From positions 1-49,001 of the forward strand of contig VGYC01000028.1 of assembly GCA_016873095.1 (NCBI GenBank): a DNA stretch of 49,001 bases, in the 5' to 3' direction. The DNA is from Planctomycetota bacterium. GTDB taxonomy: Bacteria > Planctomycetota > Planctomycetia > Gemmatales > Gemmataceae. Below the pieces are notes generated by a model. It saw nothing but the letters and a program-made list of their open reading frames with translations. It searched no databases and was not told the origin of the DNA. The translations under genes and the position numbers were made by a program. Shown here in pieces: positions 39,838-48,725 of the stretch (its first letter is position 1; each line of letters starts with the position of its first letter).

Positions 39838-40329
39838 ATGGCCGGGTCGGCGGAAGTCGCTTCCCTGCAAGCCTTGATCGACTGGAAGGCGTCGCTGTGC
39901 ACGTTCACGGCGGAGGCCAAGGAGGCGCTGTCCTCGCTGGCGATGGAAGTTCAACACACGCTGGCCTGGCTGGAAGAACAGCTCAAGTACTGGACGAGCA
40001 TGGTGCGAAAGTGCGAGGAGGAGGTGTTTCAGGCGAAGCTTGAGCTGTCGCGGCGCAAGATGATGCGCATCGGCGATCGGCCGCCGGACACCACCGAGCA
40101 AGAGCGCGCCCTGCGCCGCGCCAGGGAACGACTGGAGCACGCCGAGGAAAAGGTCGAATACTGCCGGCACTGGTTGCGGCAATTGCCGGAGGACATCAGC
40201 GATTACGAAGGCCCGGCGCGGCAACTCGGCGCGATCCTTGAAGCCGACATGCCGAAAGCCGACGCGCTGCTGGGCAGCAAGATCGCGTCGCTCGAGGCGT
40301 ACCTGCAAGTAGCGGGAGGCGGTCCATGA
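39838..40329 (+). CDS. coiled-coil protein, first gene of FtsK/EccC-like cluster (163 aa)
   Basis: ATG 39838 follows GAGGAA. The protein is almost entirely helical with long coiled-coil heptads (AKEALSSLAMEVQHTLAWLEEQLKYW, KCEEEVFQAKLELSRRKMMR, RALRRARERLEHAEEKVEYCRHWL). It has no signal peptide or membrane helix. Its stop overlaps the start of the WXG-like gene (ATGA at 40326-40329). By size, fold and position it may be a helical-hairpin substrate, chaperone or LXG/WXG-type partner of the ATPase encoded downstream; no family name can be assigned. Confidence 0.82.
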   Translation: MAGSAEVASLQALIDWKASLCTFTAEAKEALSSLAMEVQHTLAWLEEQLKYWTSMVRKCEEEVFQAKLELSRRKMMRIGDRPPDTTEQERALRRARERLEHAEEKVEYCRHWLRQLPEDISDYEGPARQLGAILEADMPKADALLGSKIASLEAYLQVAGGGP

Positions 40330-40538
40330 GCCTGGACACCGGCCGCTATCAGCTGTACTCGACGCTCAAAACGGCGTCGGCCCACTGGGACCAGACGCAG
40401 ACGGCGTGGCGCGATCAGGTAGCCAGGGATTTTGCCGAGCAGACCTGGACCCCGCTCGAGCAAAAAGCCAAGCAGGTGTTGTCGGCCATCGACCGACTGG
40501 GACAGATTATCGTGCGGGCGCGACAGGAGTGCGGCTGA
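40326..40538 (+). CDS. WXG100-like small helical protein (70 aa)
   Basis: Two helices with the central motif AWRDQVARDFAEQTW, comparable to the W-x-G turn plus following AxxF seen in WXG100/ESAT-6-type proteins, except that Asp occupies the glycine position. The second helix (PLEQKAKQVLSAIDRLGQIIVRARQ) has the usual heptads. It overlaps the coiled-coil gene by ATGA and precedes the EccC-like ATPase, as WXG100 genes often do. A second frame (+1) continues to TGA 40621-40623 with an amphipathic tail (ELRLQEILHGLLQADRMRRL). A +1 shift near 40537 would give about 98 residues, the standard WXG100 length, and would leave only 3 bp before the next start. Confidence 0.72.
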   Translation: MSLDTGRYQLYSTLKTASAHWDQTQTAWRDQVARDFAEQTWTPLEQKAKQVLSAIDRLGQIIVRARQECG

Positions 40539-40626
40539 ACTCCGGTTGCAGGAGATCTTGCATGGGCTCTTGCAGGCCGACCGCATGAGACGGCTCAGGA
40601 GAACCGTCCCACAGAGAAAATGAGGC

Positions 40627-43600
40627 ATGGCGAACCTTCCTTACAGTGATCGGCAACGCACGGCCCTGCGAGCGATCAGTGCCGAGGGGGCAGCACGCGC
40701 TATCCTGGAAGAAGACACGGCCAGCGGCGGGCACGCGCGGCAGGCTGCCGCGGACACCGAGTTTCAAGAAGCTCAGAGACGAGTTCAGGGACTCTACGAA
40801 GCTGCCCGCCAGGCCACCGAGCGGCAGCTTCAGGATGCACGCCAGTGCATCGCCGAACAGGCCAGCCATGATCTTCAAGAAGCCACCCAGGATCACGCCA
40901 CCGCTCAGCACAAGGCCAACTACCAGTACACCACCGCCAAGGAGAAGATCGAAAGCGATTTCAAGGAATCGCGCTGGACGATCACGACGATCTACGACGC
41001 GGACAAGAAGGTCGCCCGCGAGCAGCGCGCCCAGGCCGAGAGCCGGGCCGAGGCCGCCGTCAACAAGGTCCTGCATTCCCATCAAGAGGCCGAGAAGTTG
41101 CTGGCCGTCTGGCGGCTGCTGGATCTGACGCCGACGCTGGCGCCGACGTCGTTTGACAATGAACCGGACCCGGCGCGCGCCATGCAAGAGTGTGTGGTGC
41201 TCGCCAGCACCAAGCTGCTGGAGCTGAAGAGTCTCCGCCTGCCTCGCTATCTGAATCGCTTCGGCTGGCTGTGGGGTCTGGCCTGGGTGCTGTTCACCGT
41301 GCCGGCGCTTTTCATTGATCCGCCTTTTTTCTGGGCTTTGGGCAGCGCCCTCGTCGTCGGCAGCATGGGCTGGCTGGTGCGGCAATGGATGAAACAACAG
41401 GTGCGGACGCAGGCCGGCTACATCTTGCAGACCATCAGCCAGGCACTGTCCGACGTGCACAAGCTGAAACCGCGGGCGCTGGCCATCGCCAAGGCCCATT
41501 ACAAGAGCCAGCGCGCCGAGAGCAAGCGCCGCAACCAGGAGACGCTCCGCCAGGCCGTCAGGACCTGCCGCCAGCAGCTCCGCGACATCACCGCGCAGCG
41601 CGAGATGCAGATTCAGCAAGCGCAGCAGCAGTTCGCGGTGCGCCGCGACGAGATCACACGCCGGCAACGCAACGACATCGACCAGGCCGAGTCCACCTTC
41701 CAGCGGCAATGGACCGACATCCACAGCATCCGTGACAGCGAGCTGGCCCAGGTGACGCTGCGCTTCGAGAGGCTGCGCAAGGAGAACAACACCCGGCACG
41801 CGCAGGAATGGACGCACATGGCCTCGACGTGGAAGTCGGCACTGGACCGCTTCCAGGCCGTGCTCTGGGAAATCGACCAGCCATGCCGCAAGCTGTTTCC
41901 GCCCTGGGACGACCCGTGGTGGGCGGCGTGGCAGCCGCCGACGGCGGTGCCTCTGGGAATCCGCTTCGGCGAGCTGGGCGTGTCGCTGGATCTCATTCCC
42001 AACGGCGTGCCCCGCGACCCGCGTTTGCCGAAGCCGAGCCTCGACGGCGTCACGTTTCCGGCGCTGTTGCCCTTTCCCAACAAGGCATCGTTGCTCTATC
42101 GAACGCGCGACGAGGGCCGCGCGCAGGCGGTTGCTTCGCTGCAGGCTCTGGTGCTGCGTTTTCTCACGGCATTGCCGCCGGGCAAGGTGCGCTTCACGAT
42201 CATCGATCCGGTCGGCAGGGGCGAGAACTTTGCCGCCCTCATGCATCTCGCCGATTTTGACGAGCAGCTCGTCAGCAGTCGCATCTGGACCGAGTCAGCC
42301 CACATCGATCAGCGGCTTGCCGACCTGACCGAGCACATGGAGAACGTGATCCAGAAGTATCTGCGCAACGAATATGAAACACTGGAAGAATACAACGCTG
42401 CCGCGGGCGAGGTCGCCGAGCCGTATCGCATTCTCGTGGTCGCCAATTTTCCGGTGAATTTCAGCGGTGAGTCCGCGCGCCGGCTTGTCAGCCTGGCCAC
42501 CAGCGGCGCCCGCTGCGGCATCTACACGCTCGTGTCCGTCGATGAACGGCAACCGTTGCCTCAGGGCTTCGAACTCGCCGACCTGGAGCAGCCGGGACTG
42601 GCCCTCGCCTGGAACGGCCAGGGATTCACCTGGAACGACGCGGATTTCACGCCTTTTCCGCTACGGCTGGACGCGCCGCCGCCGGCGGAGTTCAGCACGC
42701 GCATCCTGCAGGTGATCGGCGAGCGCGCCAAGCTGGCCGGCCGCGTCGAGGTGCCGTTCGAATACGTCGCCCCGGCGCCGGACCGCGTCTGGACTGCCGA
42801 TAGCCGAAAGGGGCTGGCCGTGCCCATCGGCCGTGCGGGCGCCACCAAGCAGCAGTTCTTCCAGCTCGGTCAGGGAACGGCGCAGCATGCACTGGTCGGC
42901 GGCAAGACGGGCTCTGGCAAGTCCACCTTCCTGCATACTGTCATCACTCAGCTCGGCCTGTTCTACAGCCCCGACGAGGTCGAGCTTTACCTGATCGACT
43001 TCAAGAAAGGCGTCGAATTCAAGGCCTACGCCAATCACGAGATGCCGCACGCCCGCGTCGTGGCCATCGAGAGTGAACGCGAATTCGGCCTGAGTGTCTT
43101 GCAGCGGCTCGACGCGGAGTTGACCTTCCGCGGCGAGGAATTCCGGCAGACCGGCGTCAACGATTTGCCATCCTACCGGCAGTCGCATGACGCGGACGGT
43201 GTCGCTCCCGTCATGCCGCGCATCTTGCTGATCGTCGATGAATTCCAGGAGTTTTTCGTCGAGGATGACAAGATCGCCCAGGAGGCGGCCCGCTATCTCG
43301 ACCGGCTGGTTCGCCAGGGCCGTGCCTTCGGCATTCACGTGCTGCTCGGCTCGCAGACCCTGGGCGGCGCCTACAGCCTGGCACGCAGCACCATCGACCA
43401 GATGGCAGTCCGCATCGCCCTGCAATGCAGCGAGGCGGATGCGCACTTGATCCTCAGCAAGGACAACTCGGCGGCCCGCTTGCTCTCGCGACCCGGCGAA
43501 GCGATTTACAACGAGGCCGGCGGCCTGCTTGAGGGCAACAACCTCTTTCAGATCGTGTGGCTGGCGGATGAGCGCCGCGATCGCGCGCTCGCCGACATGG

Positions 43601-44574
43601 CCGGCCTGGCGCGGCAACATGGCCTTGCGTTGCCGCCGCAGATTGTTTTCGAGGGAACGGCTCCATCCGATATCACGCGCAATCCGCTGCTGGAAAAAGC
43701 CTGGCAAGAGTTTCCGCCCAGCGCGTGTCCAGCAGCTTTCAGCGCCTGGCTCGGGGAGGCCATCGCCATCAAGGACCCGACCGCCGCTGTTTTCCGCCGC
43801 CAGAGCGGCTGCAATCTGCTGATGGTGGGACAGCAGGCCGACGCCGGTTTCTGCATGATGGCGTCTTCGCTCTTGAGCCTGGCCGCGCAGCTGCCGCTGA
43901 CCGTAAACGTTCCCGCGTGCCATCTCATCGTGGGCAGCCCGCTGGATTCGGCCGAGGAAGAGTTGCTAAGGCATCTGCCGCAGGTCATGGGCCGGGCGCT
44001 CAGCGTGTGCCCGGTCCGCGACCTGCCCGGGCTGCTCGGACAGCTGGCCGAGGAAGTGGAACGCCGCCAGAAAACGCCGGCGAGCGGCGACCCGGTCTTT
44101 CTGTTCTTGTTCGGCCTGCAACGGCTGCGTGACCTGCGCCGTGCGGATGACGATTTTGGCTTTTCTCGCAAGGGCGAGACGGCCACGCCGCCCAAGCTCA
44201 TTGCCAGCATCCTGCGCGACGGCCCGCCCGTCGGCGTCTTCACCACGCTCTGGTGCGACAACCTCAACAACCTGAATCGCGCTCTCGACCGGCAAACGTT
44301 GCGCGAGTTCGAGATGCGCGTCCTCGGGCAGATGAGCGCCGCAGACTCCAGCAATCTGATCGACTCGCCGCTGGCCGGCAAGCTTGGGCCGCATCGCGCC
44401 CTGTTCTACTCCGAGGACCAGGGCCGCATCGAGAAATTCCGGCCGTATGGCATTCCGCCGGCCGCCTGGCTGCAGCGTCTCAAAAGCACGCTCGATGCTC
44501 ACCAGGCGGCGACGACGAATGGCGTGCCGGCCGACCTCACGAATGAACCATCTCTCGCGGAGCCTCGCTCATGA
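40627..44574 (+). CDS. membrane-anchored FtsK/SpoIIIE-EccC-like protein with one intact and two degenerate ATPase domains (1315 aa)
   Basis: Layout: a helical coiled coil (1-160), two membrane helices (211-230, 233-251), a long coiled coil (255-415), then three successive FtsK-like ATPase-type domains. D1 (about 480-690) has a degenerate P-loop but a Walker B-like FTIIDP and RILVVANF. D2 (about 720-1000) is complete: Walker A GGKTGSGKST (758-767), LYLIDFKKGVEFKAYA, Walker B RILLIVDEFQEFF (865 on), and GIHVLLGSQTLGG. D3 (about 1045-1290) is degenerate (NLLMVGQQADAGFCMM, FLFLFGLQRLRDL). A membrane anchor plus three tandem domains is the EccC/EssC design of type VII secretion. No FHA domain is present. 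It probably drives export of the helical proteins encoded upstream. Confidence 0.9.
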   Translation: MANLPYSDRQRTALRAISAEGAARAILEEDTASGGHARQAAADTEFQEAQRRVQGLYEAARQATERQLQDARQCIAEQASHDLQEATQDHATAQHKANYQYTTAKEKIESDFKESRWTITTIYDADKKVAREQRAQAESRAEAAVNKVLHSHQEAEKLLAVWRLLDLTPTLAPTSFDNEPDPARAMQECVVLASTKLLELKSLRLPRYLNRFGWLWGLAWVLFTVPALFIDPPFFWALGSALVVGSMGWLVRQWMKQQVRTQAGYILQTISQALSDVHKLKPRALAIAKAHYKSQRAESKRRNQETLRQAVRTCRQQLRDITAQREMQIQQAQQQFAVRRDEITRRQRNDIDQAESTFQRQWTDIHSIRDSELAQVTLRFERLRKENNTRHAQEWTHMASTWKSALDRFQAVLWEIDQPCRKLFPPWDDPWWAAWQPPTAVPLGIRFGELGVSLDLIPNGVPRDPRLPKPSLDGVTFPALLPFPNKASLLYRTRDEGRAQAVASLQALVLRFLTALPPGKVRFTIIDPVGRGENFAALMHLADFDEQLVSSRIWTESAHIDQRLADLTEHMENVIQKYLRNEYETLEEYNAAAGEVAEPYRILVVANFPVNFSGESARRLVSLATSGARCGIYTLVSVDERQPLPQGFELADLEQPGLALAWNGQGFTWNDADFTPFPLRLDAPPPAEFSTRILQVIGERAKLAGRVEVPFEYVAPAPDRVWTADSRKGLAVPIGRAGATKQQFFQLGQGTAQHALVGGKTGSGKSTFLHTVITQLGLFYSPDEVELYLIDFKKGVEFKAYANHEMPHARVVAIESEREFGLSVLQRLDAELTFRGEEFRQTGVNDLPSYRQSHDADGVAPVMPRILLIVDEFQEFFVEDDKIAQEAARYLDRLVRQGRAFGIHVLLGSQTLGGAYSLARSTIDQMAVRIALQCSEADAHLILSKDNSAARLLSRPGEAIYNEAGGLLEGNNLFQIVWLADERRDRALADMAGLARQHGLALPPQIVFEGTAPSDITRNPLLEKAWQEFPPSACPAAFSAWLGEAIAIKDPTAAVFRRQSGCNLLMVGQQADAGFCMMASSLLSLAAQLPLTVNVPACHLIVGSPLDSAEEELLRHLPQVMGRALSVCPVRDLPGLLGQLAEEVERRQKTPASGDPVFLFLFGLQRLRDLRRADDDFGFSRKGETATPPKLIASILRDGPPVGVFTTLWCDNLNNLNRALDRQTLREFEMRVLGQMSAADSSNLIDSPLAGKLGPHRALFYSEDQGRIEKFRPYGIPPAAWLQRLKSTLDAHQAATTNGVPADLTNEPSLAEPRS

Positions 44575-45512
44575 ATGAGTTCAAGATCTGGGAAACCCGA
44601 CGGGCCAGTGAGCGACGGCTGTCACCCACACTGGCGCGTCGCGCTCTGGTCGTCCTCGTCGCGATTGCTTTTCCAGCAGCTGCCCACGCGCAGGTCACGC
44701 TTGCCTGGAAGCTCGATGCCGGCGAGCGCTTCGCGCTTGAAGAAACGGTGCAGTCCCGGCAGACCATCCAGCTCGGAACCATGGAGACTCGACAGGACCT
44801 CGACCAGACTCGACAGTCGCGCGTGAGCGTGCTCAAGAAGAACCCGGACGGCACCCTGATCCTGGAACAAAAGATCGACAAAGTGAAGGTGCAGCACGGC
44901 AGCGATGGGCCAGACGCCAACACCAAGGTCTTGAAGCAACTCGAGGGCGCCAGCTTCTGGTACCACGTGGATGGCAAGCACAAGATCGTGCGCGTGGAGG
45001 GATACGATGCCCTCGTCAAGCAACTAGCCAAGGACAATCGCGCCGACGCCAGGCTGATTCGCGCCGTCTTCACCGAGGAATCGTGCAAGCGCAGCGTCGA
45101 CACCTGGCTGGGGTTCCTGCCCGCCGGACCGGTGGACAAGGGCAAGACCTGGAAGAGCAAATCATCGTTGCCGCTCGGGCCGCTCGGTGTCATGGCCATC
45201 GACGCGACCTACAAGCTGGCCGACTTCAACATGAAGACGCAGATCGCGACCATCTCGTTCTCGGGCGTCGGCGAATACAAGGCTCCTGCCGAGGATGCCG
45301 ATCTCCCCCTGAAAGTGACCGCGGGGTCTCTTCGTCTGCCGAAATACGAGGGGACAATCACCTTCAATGCCGACAAGGGTCGGCTCATCGGGCTGGAAAC
45401 GAAGATGTCGCTGCAAGGCAAGCTGACGGCTGCCATCCGCGAAACGGACATGCAACTCGAGATCACGCAGGAGCAGATACTGATCGTGAAGTGCGGGCCG
45501 GCGGCGCCGTGA
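44571..45512 (+). CDS. secreted protein, DUF6263-like (313 aa)
   Basis: ATG 44571 overlaps the ATPase stop by ATGA. After a charged N-terminus a signal peptide (RALVVLVAIAFPAAAHA-QV) leads to a beta-rich protein starting VTLAWKLDAGERFALEETVQSRQTIQLG. Its later parts (EESCKRSVDTWLGFLPAGPVDKGKTWKS; KYEGTITFNADKGRLIGLETKMSL) resemble planctomycete DUF6263-type envelope proteins. No catalytic site is visible. Its translational coupling suggests it serves the EccC-like cluster, for example as a periplasmic or envelope partner, but this is inference from position. Confidence 0.82.
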   Translation: MNEFKIWETRRASERRLSPTLARRALVVLVAIAFPAAAHAQVTLAWKLDAGERFALEETVQSRQTIQLGTMETRQDLDQTRQSRVSVLKKNPDGTLILEQKIDKVKVQHGSDGPDANTKVLKQLEGASFWYHVDGKHKIVRVEGYDALVKQLAKDNRADARLIRAVFTEESCKRSVDTWLGFLPAGPVDKGKTWKSKSSLPLGPLGVMAIDATYKLADFNMKTQIATISFSGVGEYKAPAEDADLPLKVTAGSLRLPKYEGTITFNADKGRLIGLETKMSLQGKLTAAIRETDMQLEITQEQILIVKCGPAAP

Positions 45513-45554: not shown

Positions 45555-45782
45555 TCATTTCTTGGAGTGAACGAACTTGTTGGGCGTGCCCTCGAGAGGG
45601 CCGCCGGCGGCGGGACGCCACAGGACGACGTCCTCGATCTTGCGTGCCAGCGCGAAATCCTTGTCGGTGATGCCACCGGCAGAATGGGTCTTGAGTTTCA
45701 CCCAGAGCTTGCCCCAGGTGATGGACAGGTCGGCGTGGTGCCAGGCCGCCTCGCACAGGTAGCCGATGGCGTTGGTCAGCAT
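45555..45782 (-). pseudogene. pterin-4a-carbinolamine dehydratase, 5'-truncated by element insertion
   Basis: 75 residues open at ATG 45782 and match the C-terminal two thirds of PCD: EAAWHHADLSITWGKLWVKLKTHSAGGITDKDFALARKIE, corresponding to the motif ExxxHH-x(P)...W...TH...D. The usual Pro after the two His is Ala here. The roughly 30-residue N-terminal strand region of the family is missing, and immediately before this ATG the DNA is the 3' end of a serine recombinase gene (TGATG overlap). The enzyme dehydrates 4a-hydroxytetrahydrobiopterin. The fragment is probably inactive, unless a fused or alternative start restores the fold. Confidence 0.75.
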
Positions 45783-45835
45783 CAAGGTCGTCGGCCAGCC
45801 GACCGCCCCGAACTATCGCTTGGTTTTTCCTGGGA
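45760..45835. other. putative attachment-site junction (att) of integrated element
   Basis: Here the sequence passes from PCD coding sequence to the 3' end of a large serine recombinase. Serine recombinases recombine at a 2-bp crossover within short att sites that commonly flank their own gene, so one att half should lie here. The exact crossover cannot be placed without the other end of the element, which is outside the window. Confidence 0.4.
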
Positions 45836-47956
45836 TTTCTGGGATTTCTCGTCTTCCGCATCCACCGACAACCCCGGAATATCGCTCTCGACGATCAGTC
45901 TCTTAACGTCACCCAGATGCAGAAATTCCTCCTCGACCTCGGTTAGCTGGTCCGTCAGGGCGTGGCGAGCCGCCTCCTTGACGTGCCAATGGTGAAATTC
46001 TGTCTTGTCGGGAAGCCAGCCGCCACGCTTCTTCGACTGGTCGAACTTGACGACGATCCGGGTGAACAATCGGGCCACCGTAGCACCCTTCATTCTATTG
46101 TTGCCCGCCTTCATCGCCCGGCGAACCTCTTCGAGTTGATCTAGTTTCTCCTGATACATGGCAGTGGCTTGTTCCTTCCGTTCATCGTAGGGCCGCAAGT
46201 GCTTCGCCAGCACGTCCAGCTTCGCCTCCAGTTCGCCCAGGCGGCGCTCCATCACCGCCTTTTGTCGGTCACTAACAGCACGTCGGGTAGTGGCGAGAGT
46301 CACGTCGGCGTGTTCCTCCTCGGCTTGGTCTGCCAGATGGCGGGCCATTGGCACTTTCAGCTTTTCGCACTGGAGCAACGCATCCATCTGCTCGTCAGTA
46401 GAGATGTCCTTTGCTTTCAGCGATTCCCTCACGAGATCGGCCAACGGGCCTGGGTGGGTTTCCAGTTCCAGGTCGCCCCACAACTCAAAAAGGTAGTCCT
46501 TGAAACCCAACCCGGCCTGCCGTGACGCCTCGTCACGGGCCAGGGCAACTTCCTCTTCAAGCCGCCGCTCGGCCTGCTGCTCCAACGCCAGTACCAGCCG
46601 AACACCTAGCTTGTCCAGGTAGCCCATGACCAGTGCCTCGATGCGTTCGTGCAGGACCATGTTGCGCTTGCACGTCAAATTCGCCCGAAATCGCTGGTAC
46701 TTGTAGCAGTAGGAGGCACAAATGTAGGCCCGCTTCGAGTTGTTGGACTTGCCACAAACCATCTGCTTTCCGCAGTGTCCGCAGTAAAGCACGGGTTTCA
46801 GCCAGCCGTCATCATTTCGTGGCGCACGGATTCCGGTCCACCGATTCTGCTCACGGAATGCTTGCACGGCCTCGAAGAGTTCGTCATTGACCAGCGGCTC
46901 GTGCTTTGGTTCGTCCGAAAGAATCCACTCCTCCCTGGGTCGGTCCCGCTCCTTATTTTTCAGTTCTTCGGGGCGGCGCTCCAGGTGGTTGCCGTCCTTG
47001 GCCTCCTTTCTAAAGAAGAAGAACTTGGCCTTGGTCGTCCTGTTCCTCACTCGATAGCCGAGGTAAGTCGGGTTCTCCAGCATGTATTCGATCATGCCCT
47101 TGTCGAACGGCCTGCCCTTGTAGCTGGTGAACCCTTCGATCTGGAGGCGGCGAGCGAGTTGGGCAGACGAGATACACCCGGCCTCTGCGTGGTAAATCTG
47201 AAAGGCCCGGAGGACGCAGTGCTGTCGCTTCAGGTCAAAGCTGGGTACATAGGCGTAGTGCTGGCTCGTCGCCCTGACCGGGTGGTTGCCCTTGCCATTA
47301 AACGGAACCTGCGAGCCGTCTGGAAGAATTTGAATGCGTTCGGATCGGTCGAGATAGTGGAGCCGCCAGACAAGATTGCCTTGTGCATCGAAGCAGCCCT
47401 GATCGTAGCCGAACGTCGGAACTTGGCCCAAGTCCCTACCCACTTTCGCCATCTCACCGACCTGCCCTGCCACTCGCTTGGCAATCTTATGCTGCTCTTC
47501 TCGGCTTCCACGGGTCTTGAACAGCGCCTCGATCATGCCTTTGAGGTCGTCCTCGTCGCCGGTCAGGTCGCCTTCCATAACAGAGATGATCTTGCAGCCG
47601 TGTTCATCGAACTCGTCGCAACGTCGGAACCACTGCCTCGGCCCCTTTACGCCGAACCTGTCGAGTTCGTAAATCCAGAACACCTTGAGCCGGTTCGGGT
47701 CATCACGCCGTTGATTCAGCACCCGCTGATACTGAGCCATGAAGTTGGGACGGGCCTCGGCCATATCACGGCTGCCCCAATCCCATTGCACCGGGCTATA
47801 CAGTGGCATGGATTTCTTTTTCAGCACCAGTTCCCAAAGGTGGTCGGGAATGTTGATACCCTCGGCCTTCATCCTTTCACGGAGGCCCGCAACTTGGCGA
47901 TCAACTTCTTGGCGTTCGTCTGAAATGCGGACATAGCAAACATCAGTTGGCAGCAT
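45782..47956 (-). CDS. large serine recombinase
   Basis: 724 residues from ATG 47956. The catalytic resolvase domain begins VCYVRISDERQEVDRQV, where Ser of RIS is the expected nucleophile, with FWIYELDRFGVKGPRQW and the EEQHKIAKRVAGQ helix completing the active site. A recombinase domain (about 210-340; AFQIYHAEAGCISSAQLARRL ... YLGYRVRN) and a zinc ribbon (PVLYCGHCGKQMVC ... CASYCYKYQRFRANLTCKR) follow, then long coiled coils, as in integrases of the phiC31/TnpX type. It would integrate or excise a mobile element. Its last codons overlap the truncated PCD gene, which marks the insertion. A GTG at 47983 is a less likely start. Confidence 0.92.
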   Translation of the reverse strand: MLPTDVCYVRISDERQEVDRQVAGLRERMKAEGINIPDHLWELVLKKKSMPLYSPVQWDWGSRDMAEARPNFMAQYQRVLNQRRDDPNRLKVFWIYELDRFGVKGPRQWFRRCDEFDEHGCKIISVMEGDLTGDEDDLKGMIEALFKTRGSREEQHKIAKRVAGQVGEMAKVGRDLGQVPTFGYDQGCFDAQGNLVWRLHYLDRSERIQILPDGSQVPFNGKGNHPVRATSQHYAYVPSFDLKRQHCVLRAFQIYHAEAGCISSAQLARRLQIEGFTSYKGRPFDKGMIEYMLENPTYLGYRVRNRTTKAKFFFFRKEAKDGNHLERRPEELKNKERDRPREEWILSDEPKHEPLVNDELFEAVQAFREQNRWTGIRAPRNDDGWLKPVLYCGHCGKQMVCGKSNNSKRAYICASYCYKYQRFRANLTCKRNMVLHERIEALVMGYLDKLGVRLVLALEQQAERRLEEEVALARDEASRQAGLGFKDYLFELWGDLELETHPGPLADLVRESLKAKDISTDEQMDALLQCEKLKVPMARHLADQAEEEHADVTLATTRRAVSDRQKAVMERRLGELEAKLDVLAKHLRPYDERKEQATAMYQEKLDQLEEVRRAMKAGNNRMKGATVARLFTRIVVKFDQSKKRGGWLPDKTEFHHWHVKEAARHALTDQLTEVEEEFLHLGDVKRLIVESDIPGLSVDAEDEKSQKSQEKPSDSSGRSAGRRP

Positions 47957-48208
47957 GGTTCGTCTTTCTTGAGGGAAGGACACTCAGGGGAGGTCGAGGG
48001 CAGAATCGACGGCAAGAGCCGATCCACTCGGTCCAGACAATCCCCGCTCCGCAACACTCGTGCGGAATACGCAGATTGCCTTGAACGGGGGTCGGGTCGT
48101 CGTCCCTCAAGGCGAAAGCCGGGAAACTTGCAAAGCGACCACAAATAGAAGTTCCCGACGAGCAGGATTGTACCACGCAGTAGGGCGAGTTGTAAACCGA
48201 TCTGACGA
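47957..48208. other. spacer between the two recombinase genes
   Basis: 252 bp with no convincing coding frame. It contains the upstream region of the large recombinase gene. No clear promoter, repeat or RNA gene was seen. Confidence 0.4.
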
Positions 48209-48667
48209 TCATTCGTTGCCGGACCCAGCCTCAGCAGTGTCGGCAGCGGCCCGGCGCTCACGAGCCGCCCAAATGCCCTGCTTGATCCGCTCGCTCCTGC
48301 GTTGCGATTCCGTCTTGGCAAGCTGGTTCATGATCGCCTGGGCGAAAAGATCAGTAATGCCGACCTCGCCGCCCTCAGCCGTCATGATGCGGACCCCAGC
48401 CATCTTCAACGTCATGATGATCTCCGGTGTCACTTGCCGAGTCAGCCGGGAAAGGTCGGCACAGAGTAGCACGTCGAACTTGCCCTGCGCTGCGTCTTCA
48501 AGCAGCTTCTTCAGGCCGGGGCGGTCGCCGACGCCCTGGTTGCCGCTGGCGTCGTCCCGGTACTCGCCGACGATCTCGTGCGTGTCGCCCAACTTGGCGA
48601 CGAGTTCATCACGCTGGCGGTCGTGGTCGCCTGTAGACGATCTCGTGTAGATGGTTGCCTTTGTCAT
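48209..48667 (-). CDS. serine resolvase-type protein, catalytic domain only (152 aa)
   Basis: ATG 48667 is chosen because GAGGAG lies 7 nt upstream; ATG 48673 has it too close. The protein is a resolvase N-terminal domain: ATIYTRSSTGDHDRQRDEL (nucleophile among the Ser pair), GVGDRPGLKKLLEDAAQGKFDVLLCADLSRLTR, and a C-terminal helix (FAQAIMNQLAKTESQRRSERIKQG). It lacks a helix-turn-helix or zinc ribbon. Alone it may be a partner or control subunit for the large recombinase 250 bp downstream, or a small-resolvase relic. Confidence 0.82.
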   Translation of the reverse strand: MTKATIYTRSSTGDHDRQRDELVAKLGDTHEIVGEYRDDASGNQGVGDRPGLKKLLEDAAQGKFDVLLCADLSRLTRQVTPEIIMTLKMAGVRIMTAEGGEVGITDLFAQAIMNQLAKTESQRRSERIKQGIWAARERRAAADTAEAGSGNE

Positions 48668-48725
48668 GGTCATGCTCCTCATCATTTGCCGGGTCAACGT
48701 GTCCTTCTTCGCTTCTTTTCCGTAC

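What the first reader, a model, noticed from the sequence alone, without database searches (positions are those of the whole stretch)
39838..45512. Divergent type VII-like (EccC/WXG100) export cluster in a planctomycete
Seen directly: four consecutive plus-strand genes, three of them joined by ATGA overlaps or very short gaps. They encode a coiled-coil protein, a 70-aa protein with a WRDQVARDF turn in the WXG position, a 1315-aa membrane protein with a complete FtsK P-loop (758-767) and Walker B (865 on) between two degenerate copies, and a secreted beta-rich protein. Known: EccC/EssC proteins of type VII systems have two membrane helices and three tandem FtsK-like domains and export WXG100 dimers. 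Inference: this is a minimal or separate branch with the intact ATPase in the middle domain, a long N-terminal coiled coil instead of FHA domains, and no EccB/D/E or EsaA-type partners in the window.
Basis: partly seen in the sequence, partly recalled or inferred. Interest (0 to 1): 0.8.

Follow-up and report, generated by a model that had tools for sequence, protein, structure and literature searches.

The report
Stripped-down type VII-like secretion cassette
A planctomycete carries a small, widely conserved set of genes built like a minimal type VII secretion machine (one EccC-like motor plus WXG100-type helper proteins), of a kind already noted in print, but here without the toxin end that some relatives carry.

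Summary
The conserved unit is A (163 aa, two long helices), B (70 aa, WXG-like) and a 1315-aa motor; the DUF6263 gene behind it was found here only. In the window's genome W90 lies on another contig. W90 and A are kept or lost with the motor, also where unlinked.

The motor has three FtsK-type domains, only the middle one intact; its model matches EccC best. This branch is already described: a 2012 footnote (planctomycetes named) and the 2024 CoCoNuT paper. So it is a new variant of a known kind. What I did not find described: a mostly single-copy, membrane-anchored form in Planctomycetia whose A has no effector domain, while Chloroflexota A proteins have variable ends; and, in two Chloroflexota-type operons, a diversity-generating retroelement that rewrites a membrane protein (in one of the two, that protein shares its N-terminus with the planctomycete motor). 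Export itself is inferred, not shown.

The parts
39838..40329 (+). gene A, 163 aa, two long helices (6-75, 86-159), presumably a hairpin; equivalent of the conserved N-terminal part of the larger A proteins of relatives
   Evidence: ORF; tblastn in 85 of 111 loci; alignment A1; model pLDDT 92.6
40326..40538 (+). gene B, 70 aa, WXG-like (W21, W28, D30 invariant, F36 nearly so)
   Evidence: tblastn in 84 of 111 loci; alignment of 30; profile match to W90 E 1.4e-6; 7 of 30 members hit PF06013 at E up to 0.1, the window's own does not
40627..44574 (+). motor gene, 1315 aa, EccC/EssC-like ATPase
40627..41256 (+). charged N-terminal region of the motor, probably coiled coil (residues 1-210)
   Evidence: read from the sequence, not modelled; similar region in separate membrane proteins of 4 Chloroflexota loci
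41260..41316 (+). predicted membrane helix (residues 212-230); a second, weaker hydrophobic stretch from 233 (mean 1.52 against 1.81)
   Evidence: hydropathy only; of 94 family members over 1200 aa, 74 have two such stretches, 13 one, 4 none, 3 three
41869..42741 (+). first FtsK-like domain, no P-loop (about residues 415-705)
   Evidence: resembles EccC5 DUF domain 8rin, Z 16
42769..43632 (+). middle FtsK domain, catalytic (about residues 715-1002)
   Evidence: PF01580 106 bits; EccCa 117 bits
42898..42927 (+). Walker A GGKTGSGKST (residues 758-767)
43219..43257 (+). Walker B RILLIVDEFQEFF (residues 865-877)
43633..44511 (+). third FtsK-like domain, no P-loop (about residues 1003-1295)

Best explanation
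It is a minimal WXG100/EssC-like export cassette of the branch in which only the middle of three FtsK domains works. Working model: W90 (made from another place in this genome), A and B pack side by side into a helical bundle, as LXG toxins do with their two small Lap partners; the bundle, through the W-x-D turns of W90 and B, docks on the motor; the motor, anchored by two membrane helices, forms a ring and uses ATP in its middle domain to push the bundle, or what it carries, through the inner membrane. In Chloroflexota A ends in a variable domain, so there A is probably the effector. In most Planctomycetota examined A lacks such a domain, so here the cassette moves A itself or serves an unknown housekeeping task. 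Shown: gene set, conservation, co-retention, domain layout, fold. Inferred: complex, ring, export, loss (rather than lack) of the effector end.
For: Gene order W90-A-B-motor in 77 of 110 loci. W90 is a WXG100 protein over the Pfam cut-off (two typed examples; own copy 35 bits against 27.3, and 31 of 31 members hit at E up to 0.001); nearest solved structures are H. pylori HP0062, then EsxB and EsxA. Co-retention: in 59 genomes motor and W90 both 46, motor only 3, neither 10, W90 only 0; in 149 genomes motor and A both 107, A only 1, motor only 5, neither 36; in 4 of those 5 the motor match starts within 190 bases of the contig start, on the side where A would be. A is kept though unlinked in single-contig genomes G099, G114, G120, W90 in G099. 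Motor model pLDDT 89.2, best PDB match EccC 4nh0, E 2e-31. A has differing ends in the six Chloroflexota-clade loci where it was found: HExxH in L098, ParB-like in L083, L089, L109, others in L093, L108 (read by eye). W-A-B triplets without a motor in the stretch read in two Caldilineaceae. In a Helicobacter plasmid the protein in A's place is a WHH nuclease followed by a SUKH (immunity-type) protein, but it is A by position only (profile E 0.34).
Against: No secretion is shown for this branch in anything I read. Pfam does not call A an LXG domain and Foldseek finds no PDB match to it at E up to 0.001. A and B profiles do not match each other. NCBIfam scores stay far below the EccC and EssC cut-offs (117 against 509; 103 against 778). 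None of the six Chloroflexota-clade motors listed has a hydrophobic stretch in its N-terminal part; of four plasmid motors two have none and two one weak stretch; so a membrane anchor on the motor is not constant. A was not found in 3 of 21 genomes searched by handle, all three Chloroflexota. Nothing known would carry a cargo over the planctomycete outer membrane. The cassette is patchy beyond the class: 39 of 294 genomes drawn over the phylum. Six Phycisphaerae-type A proteins have an end too, Imm33-like in the three scanned, so 'no end' is not true of the whole phylum.
Confidence: 0.6

Rival explanations
1. An intracellular device, not a secretion system: a HerA/FtsK-type motor that, with WXG-like and coiled-coil partners, works on nucleic acid or releases a restrained effector inside the cell, as suspected for the CoCoNuT-associated version.
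For: The Caballeronia relative L149 sits among VWA, CARF, PP2C and kinase genes, the Rhodococcus one L147 near TerD genes, and L149 has no hydrophobic stretch; the CoCoNuT paper expects 'a different mechanism' because of the lack of membrane helices (passage). By Z one FtsK DNA motor domain matches the model as well as or better than EccC and EssC (31.7 against 27.7 to 28.8, but over 285 residues against 491 to 746). One retroelement-target protein (G151, L155) has no clear membrane stretch.
Against: The planctomycete motor is predicted to be in the membrane; a WXG100 partner is kept; in Helicobacter L148 an immunity-type protein follows the nuclease, which fits delivery to siblings; over all three domains the model matches EccC best.
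Confidence: 0.28
2. A remnant: a toxin-delivery cassette that lost its toxin and is decaying.
For: No Pfam toxin domain on A and no further gene between A and the motor besides B; W90 split off from the operon in this genome; a few motors carry a stop inside the matched frame.
Against: Long open frames and 100% conserved catalytic residues over deep splits; W90 and A kept even when unlinked; the motor tree largely follows taxonomy.
Confidence: 0.08
3. An ordinary FtsK/SpoIIIE DNA translocase with unrelated neighbours.
For: PF01580 match.
Against: No gamma domain among hits, three tandem domains, fold nearest to EccC, linked WXG100 gene in relatives; the genome's ordinary FtsK seems to be another gene, matched only at E 7e-9 (its naming is inferred).
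Confidence: 0.02

Closest known systems
Solo-WXG 'mobile versions of T7SS' with three HerA/FtsK domains, only the middle one active (Zhang et al. 2012, PMC3482391, table footnote; passages seen)
   Same: Same motor layout, same WXG link; planctomycetes are named there
   Different: The passages seen do not describe A, B or the four-gene order; in Planctomycetia the motor tree largely follows taxonomy
EssC-like module of Type III-A CoCoNuTs (PMC11090510, 2024; passages seen)
   Same: Only central domain active, N-terminal coiled coil, two WXG100-type proteins, a coiled-coil protein
   Different: There the coiled-coil protein carries a nuclease-type domain and the motor has no membrane helices; here A ends without a domain and the motor is predicted in the membrane
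H. pylori HP0062/HP0066 WXG100 cluster (PMC4978471, PMC3397514; passages seen)
   Same: HP0062 is the nearest solved structure to W90; clustered with an FtsK/SpoIIIE protein
   Different: The pan-genome paper groups an HNH/Endo VII nuclease with it; none here
EccC/EssC of T7SSa and T7SSb
   Same: Fold, N-terminal membrane helices, WXG100 partner
   Different: Catalytic domain in the middle; no YukC or YukD in the genome; no FHA domain among Pfam hits
LXG-Lap1-Lap2 pre-secretion complex (PMC9600955; start of abstract in a listing, and passages)
   Same: Long helical N-terminal domain, in relatives with a variable C-terminal end, and two small helical partners
   Different: No sequence match to LXG; A here has no C-terminal domain

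Membership tests
WXG100/EssC-like branch with active middle domain | three tandem FtsK-like domains, P-loop only in the middle one | tested here: met
WXG100/EssC-like branch with active middle domain | WXG100 protein encoded with the motor | tested here: met
   next to it in relatives; in this genome present but on another contig
WXG100/EssC-like branch with active middle domain | second WXG-like protein and a coiled-coil partner | tested here: met
   B; A
WXG100/EssC-like branch with active middle domain | nuclease or other effector domain on the coiled-coil partner (feature of published examples) | tested here: not met
   A is 163 aa, helices only; ends present in some relatives
WXG100/EssC-like branch with active middle domain | mobile distribution | tested here: inconclusive
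   motor tree largely follows taxonomy, but distant plasmid copies exist and the phylum is patchy
Type VIIb secretion system | YukC/EssB and YukD/EsaB partners | tested here: not met
   0 of 1 genome, B. subtilis control rings
Type VIIa (ESX) secretion system | EccB membrane core | tested here: inconclusive
   no match, but no control genome rang either
Type VIIa (ESX) secretion system | EccD and EccE | not tested
   no search made
EccC/EssC (NCBIfam equivalogs) | score above the curated cut-off | tested here: not met
   117.1 against 509.15, 103 against 778.4, 83.7 against 346.55
FtsK DNA translocase | C-terminal gamma domain | tested here: not met
   not among Pfam families up to E 1
LXG toxins | LXG domain by sequence | tested here: not met
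   not listed for the A proteins scanned
Any protein secretion system | export of a substrate | not testable with these tools
   needs experiment

The most novel reading that the evidence does not exclude
The branch is a contact-type toxin export system with changeable aim: in Chloroflexota the membrane anchor is a separate protein whose C-type-lectin-like (FGE) end is rewritten by a retroelement inside the operon, while A brings exchangeable toxin ends. The planctomycete cassette is its toxin-free, fixed, inherited form, with the anchor fused to the motor and a new housekeeping role in a cell with two membranes.
Probability: 0.2. Interest if true: 0.85.

Novelty: new variant of a known kind. 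Interest (0 to 1): 0.55.

Why it matters
Type VII secretion is studied mostly in Gram-positive and mycobacterial cells (recalled). An inherited WXG100-plus-motor cassette without an effector end, in diderm bacteria, offers a minimal system to ask what the motor and the WXG partners do on their own. Relatives with variable ends and with a retroelement suggest how such a cassette may be armed and aimed, and give H. pylori HP0062/HP0066, solved but unexplained in the papers seen, a wider family to compare with.

Tried and rejected
Rejected: the DUF6263 gene as a member. Rejected: a plain FtsK translocase. Rejected: category-level novelty. Left open: whether the first domain is EccC's DUF domain, so that the layout would be DUF-D1(active)-D2 without D3; it fits 8rin at Z 16 and the EccCa over EccCb scores, but 4nh0 aligns over all three domains too. 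PDB profile search with A gave only weak matches to unrelated, mostly coiled-coil proteins, none below E 0.03; Foldseek of A nothing at E up to 0.001. tblastn of the L141 nuclease-like end against plasmids: no match. Pfam names no toxin end in the six Chloroflexota-clade A proteins of the main loci or the two extra ones (the L109 ParB_N hit has E 0.081), so 'ParB-like', 'HExxH', 'HNH-like' and 'nuclease-like' there are my reading of the letters. The efflux gene beside W90 is named by my reading too. Of six long Phycisphaerae-type A proteins three were scanned and match PF24719 Imm33-like, the one in L100 below cut-off. W of the Helicobacter plasmid is below the Pfam cut-off (24 against 27.3) though it hits the W90 profile. 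The phylum draw scored only 3 candidates a genome, so 39 of 294 may be low. Loci are not all independent: some genome-search loci and genome-contig loci are the same sequence (L020 and L034, L022 and L039, L025 and L077). L002 was dropped from the 111 before the order count, as it has no strong motor match. On rechecking I lowered the main odds from 0.62 to 0.6, because the Helicobacter nuclease is A by position only.
Full report
What is there. The window holds, on the + strand, A (163 aa), B (70 aa) and a 1315-aa motor, then a DUF6263 gene. Against 111 loci fetched with the motor as bait, tblastn (E up to 0.01) finds A in 85, B in 84 and the DUF6263 protein in 1, the window itself. The unit is therefore A-B-motor; the overlap of the fourth gene with the motor looks like a local accident.

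The missing gene. In relatives a 90-aa protein stands just before A. It is a WXG100 protein over the Pfam cut-off in two typed examples and in the own copy, and 31 of 31 aligned members hit PF06013 at E up to 0.001. Its closest solved structures are H. pylori HP0062, then EsxB and EsxA. On 110 oriented loci (L002 dropped) all four genes are present, in this order, in 77; of the other 33, 21 have 3 kb or less before the motor match and 12 have more yet lack one or more genes. Five of these lack all three; for four of the five A was found elsewhere in the same genome, with W90, B or both beside it; the fifth, L091, was not looked at. In the window's genome W90 lies on contig C120, 12022-12291, beside a divergent gene that I read as a cation-efflux transporter, with no A or motor in the 16 kb read; in G026 that gene flanks the complete cassette. 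So the operon seems to have broken between W90 and A here, unless the assembly is at fault. A has no second copy in this genome (next match E 0.07).

Kept together. I compared by hand the motor table (strong match, E < 1e-40: 112 of 149) with W90 (59 genomes) and A (149 genomes). Motor and W90: both 46, motor only 3 (G002, G014, G098), neither 10, W90 only 0. Motor and A: both 107, A only 1 (G060), motor only 5 (G002, G014, G070, G080, G086), neither 36. In four of the five the motor match begins within 190 bases of the contig start, where A would be cut off. Genes are also kept when unlinked: in the single-contig genome G099 W90, A and motor are at 2.50, 4.30 and 5.92 Mb. Losses tend to run by genus (for example g14, g19, g51, g56). 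W90 was found once in each of the 46 genomes; A once in 101 of 108 and twice in seven (G107, G111, G119, G122, G128, G143, G146), all of family f3, which also show two strong motor places. Genomes are related, so these counts are not independent. Across the whole phylum the motor is patchy, 39 of 294.

The motor. Pfam sees FtsK_SpoIIIE; the best NCBIfam models are EccCa, EssC and EccCb, all far below cut-off. Over the family only the middle domain has a P-loop; K765, D871 and E872 are 100% conserved. The model of residues 415-1295 (60 sequences, pLDDT 89.2) matches EccC 4nh0 best by Foldseek (E 2e-31). By VIA-align Z, single FtsK motor domains rank first (Z 31.7 over 285 residues), EccC and EssC stretches follow over 491 to 746 residues. 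The N-terminal part has two hydrophobic stretches in 74 of 94 long members; in the window one is clear (mean 1.81) and one weaker (1.52). The motor tree of 111 rows puts the Chloroflexota rows on one branch (support 97) and needs three changes for the Planctomycetota label, one row being a Lentisphaerae bin among Phycisphaerae and one a 'Bacteroidales' bin identical to a motor of the window's own family; plasmid rows sit on very long branches.

Partners. A models as two helices of about 70 residues (pLDDT 92.6), with no sequence or PDB match that names it. B and W90 profiles match (E 1.4e-6). Of 84 A proteins 12 exceed 290 aa: six from the Chloroflexota clade, which are all that were found there, and six from Phycisphaerae-type loci (tree). 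The Chloroflexota ends differ from each other by eye, three being ParB-like; Pfam names none of them. A Rhodococcus plasmid carries a motor relative beside an A-like protein (profile E 5e-8) whose end is 37.6% identical to one Chloroflexota A end. A plasmid of Helicobacter sp. NHP19-012 carries W, a WHH nuclease in A's place, a SUKH protein, a small protein in B's place, and a motor. In the four plasmid loci the W profile hits clearly (E 8e-11 or better); the A profile hits two clearly, one weakly (Caballeronia, 9e-4) and not the Helicobacter protein (0.34); the B profile hits one clearly, two weakly and not the Caballeronia protein in B's place (0.44). Two Caldilineaceae have an extra W-A-B triplet with no motor in the stretch read. 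A was not found in three other Chloroflexota genomes. Together these suggest that A is an effector carrier in part of the branch; in the Planctomycetia examined the end is absent or short.

A surprise outside the window. In Chloroflexota a separate gene between B and the motor shares the N-terminal region of the planctomycete motor in four loci (L098 4e-11, L093 3.5e-8, L109 2.3e-5, L089 8e-4; 0 hits in shuffled sequences); coiled-coil composition may add to such scores. The matching protein of L083 and the second one of L089 do not hit (E 7), that of G151 hardly (0.2). These proteins end in WD40 repeats or an FGE-sulfatase (lectin-like) domain (G151 and the second one of L089 not scanned). 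In L083 and L093 a reverse transcriptase follows, with a bAvd protein in L093, and a template repeat of the end of the FGE gene: 18 changes, all at template A, in L083; 17 at A and 2 not in L093; beside the extra triplet of G151 (L142) 11, all at A. This is the signature of a diversity-generating retroelement, in 3 of the 11 loci examined. In L083 and L093 the FGE end follows one hydrophobic stretch; the G151 protein has none above 1.33, so whether the diversified end faces outward is not settled.

What is known. Zhang et al. 2012 (PMC3482391, passages) note solo WXG proteins with a motor of three HerA/FtsK domains, only the middle active, in planctomycetes among others, as 'mobile versions of T7SS'. 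The CoCoNuT paper (PMC11090510, passages) describes such a motor with N-terminal coiled coil, two WXG100-type proteins and a coiled-coil nuclease. PMC4978471 (passages) speaks of WxG and FtsK as a minimal type VII set with HP0062 and HP0066; PMC3397514 (passages) describes HP0062. So the kind is known. The membrane-anchored, inherited form without an effector end, and the retroelement link, are what I did not find described; for the latter I made no search.

Verdict. Most likely a minimal type VII-like export cassette (0.6), with an intracellular motor as the main rival (0.28). No step of export is shown.

Noticed in passing
L083:1917-4743, L093:3446-6500, L155:1229-3536 with L142:272-2020: Diversity-generating retroelements (reverse transcriptase, bAvd in L093, A-specific template/variable repeats) that target an FGE/lectin-like protein; in L083 and L093 between B and the motor, in G151 beside an extra W-A-B triplet.
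   Followed up: partly
L141:2028-3835, L142:3431-5069: Extra W-A-B triplets without a motor gene in the stretch read, in two Caldilineaceae; both A proteins share a nuclease-like end by eye.
   Followed up: partly
window 45782-48697, - strand: A serine recombinase in two open frames (Resolvase N-terminal domain 48209-48697; Recombinase and zinc ribbon 45782-47983); possible cause of a local rearrangement.
   Followed up: no
L118:8023-9416: The WXG100 gene of this genome lies beside a divergent gene read as a cation-efflux transporter, the same neighbour as in front of the complete cassette of G026.
   Followed up: yes
G107, G111, G119, G122, G128, G143, G146 (family f3): These genomes have two A genes and two strong motor places each; in G107 and G111, the two of them searched, only one W90 was found.
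   Followed up: no
L034: A genome titled 'Bacteroidales bacterium' carries a motor identical to that of a genome of the window's family (L020); probably a mislabelled bin.
   Followed up: no
L045, L057, L100 (gene A): Phycisphaerae-type A proteins end in an Imm33-like domain (PF24719; L100 below cut-off).
   Followed up: partly
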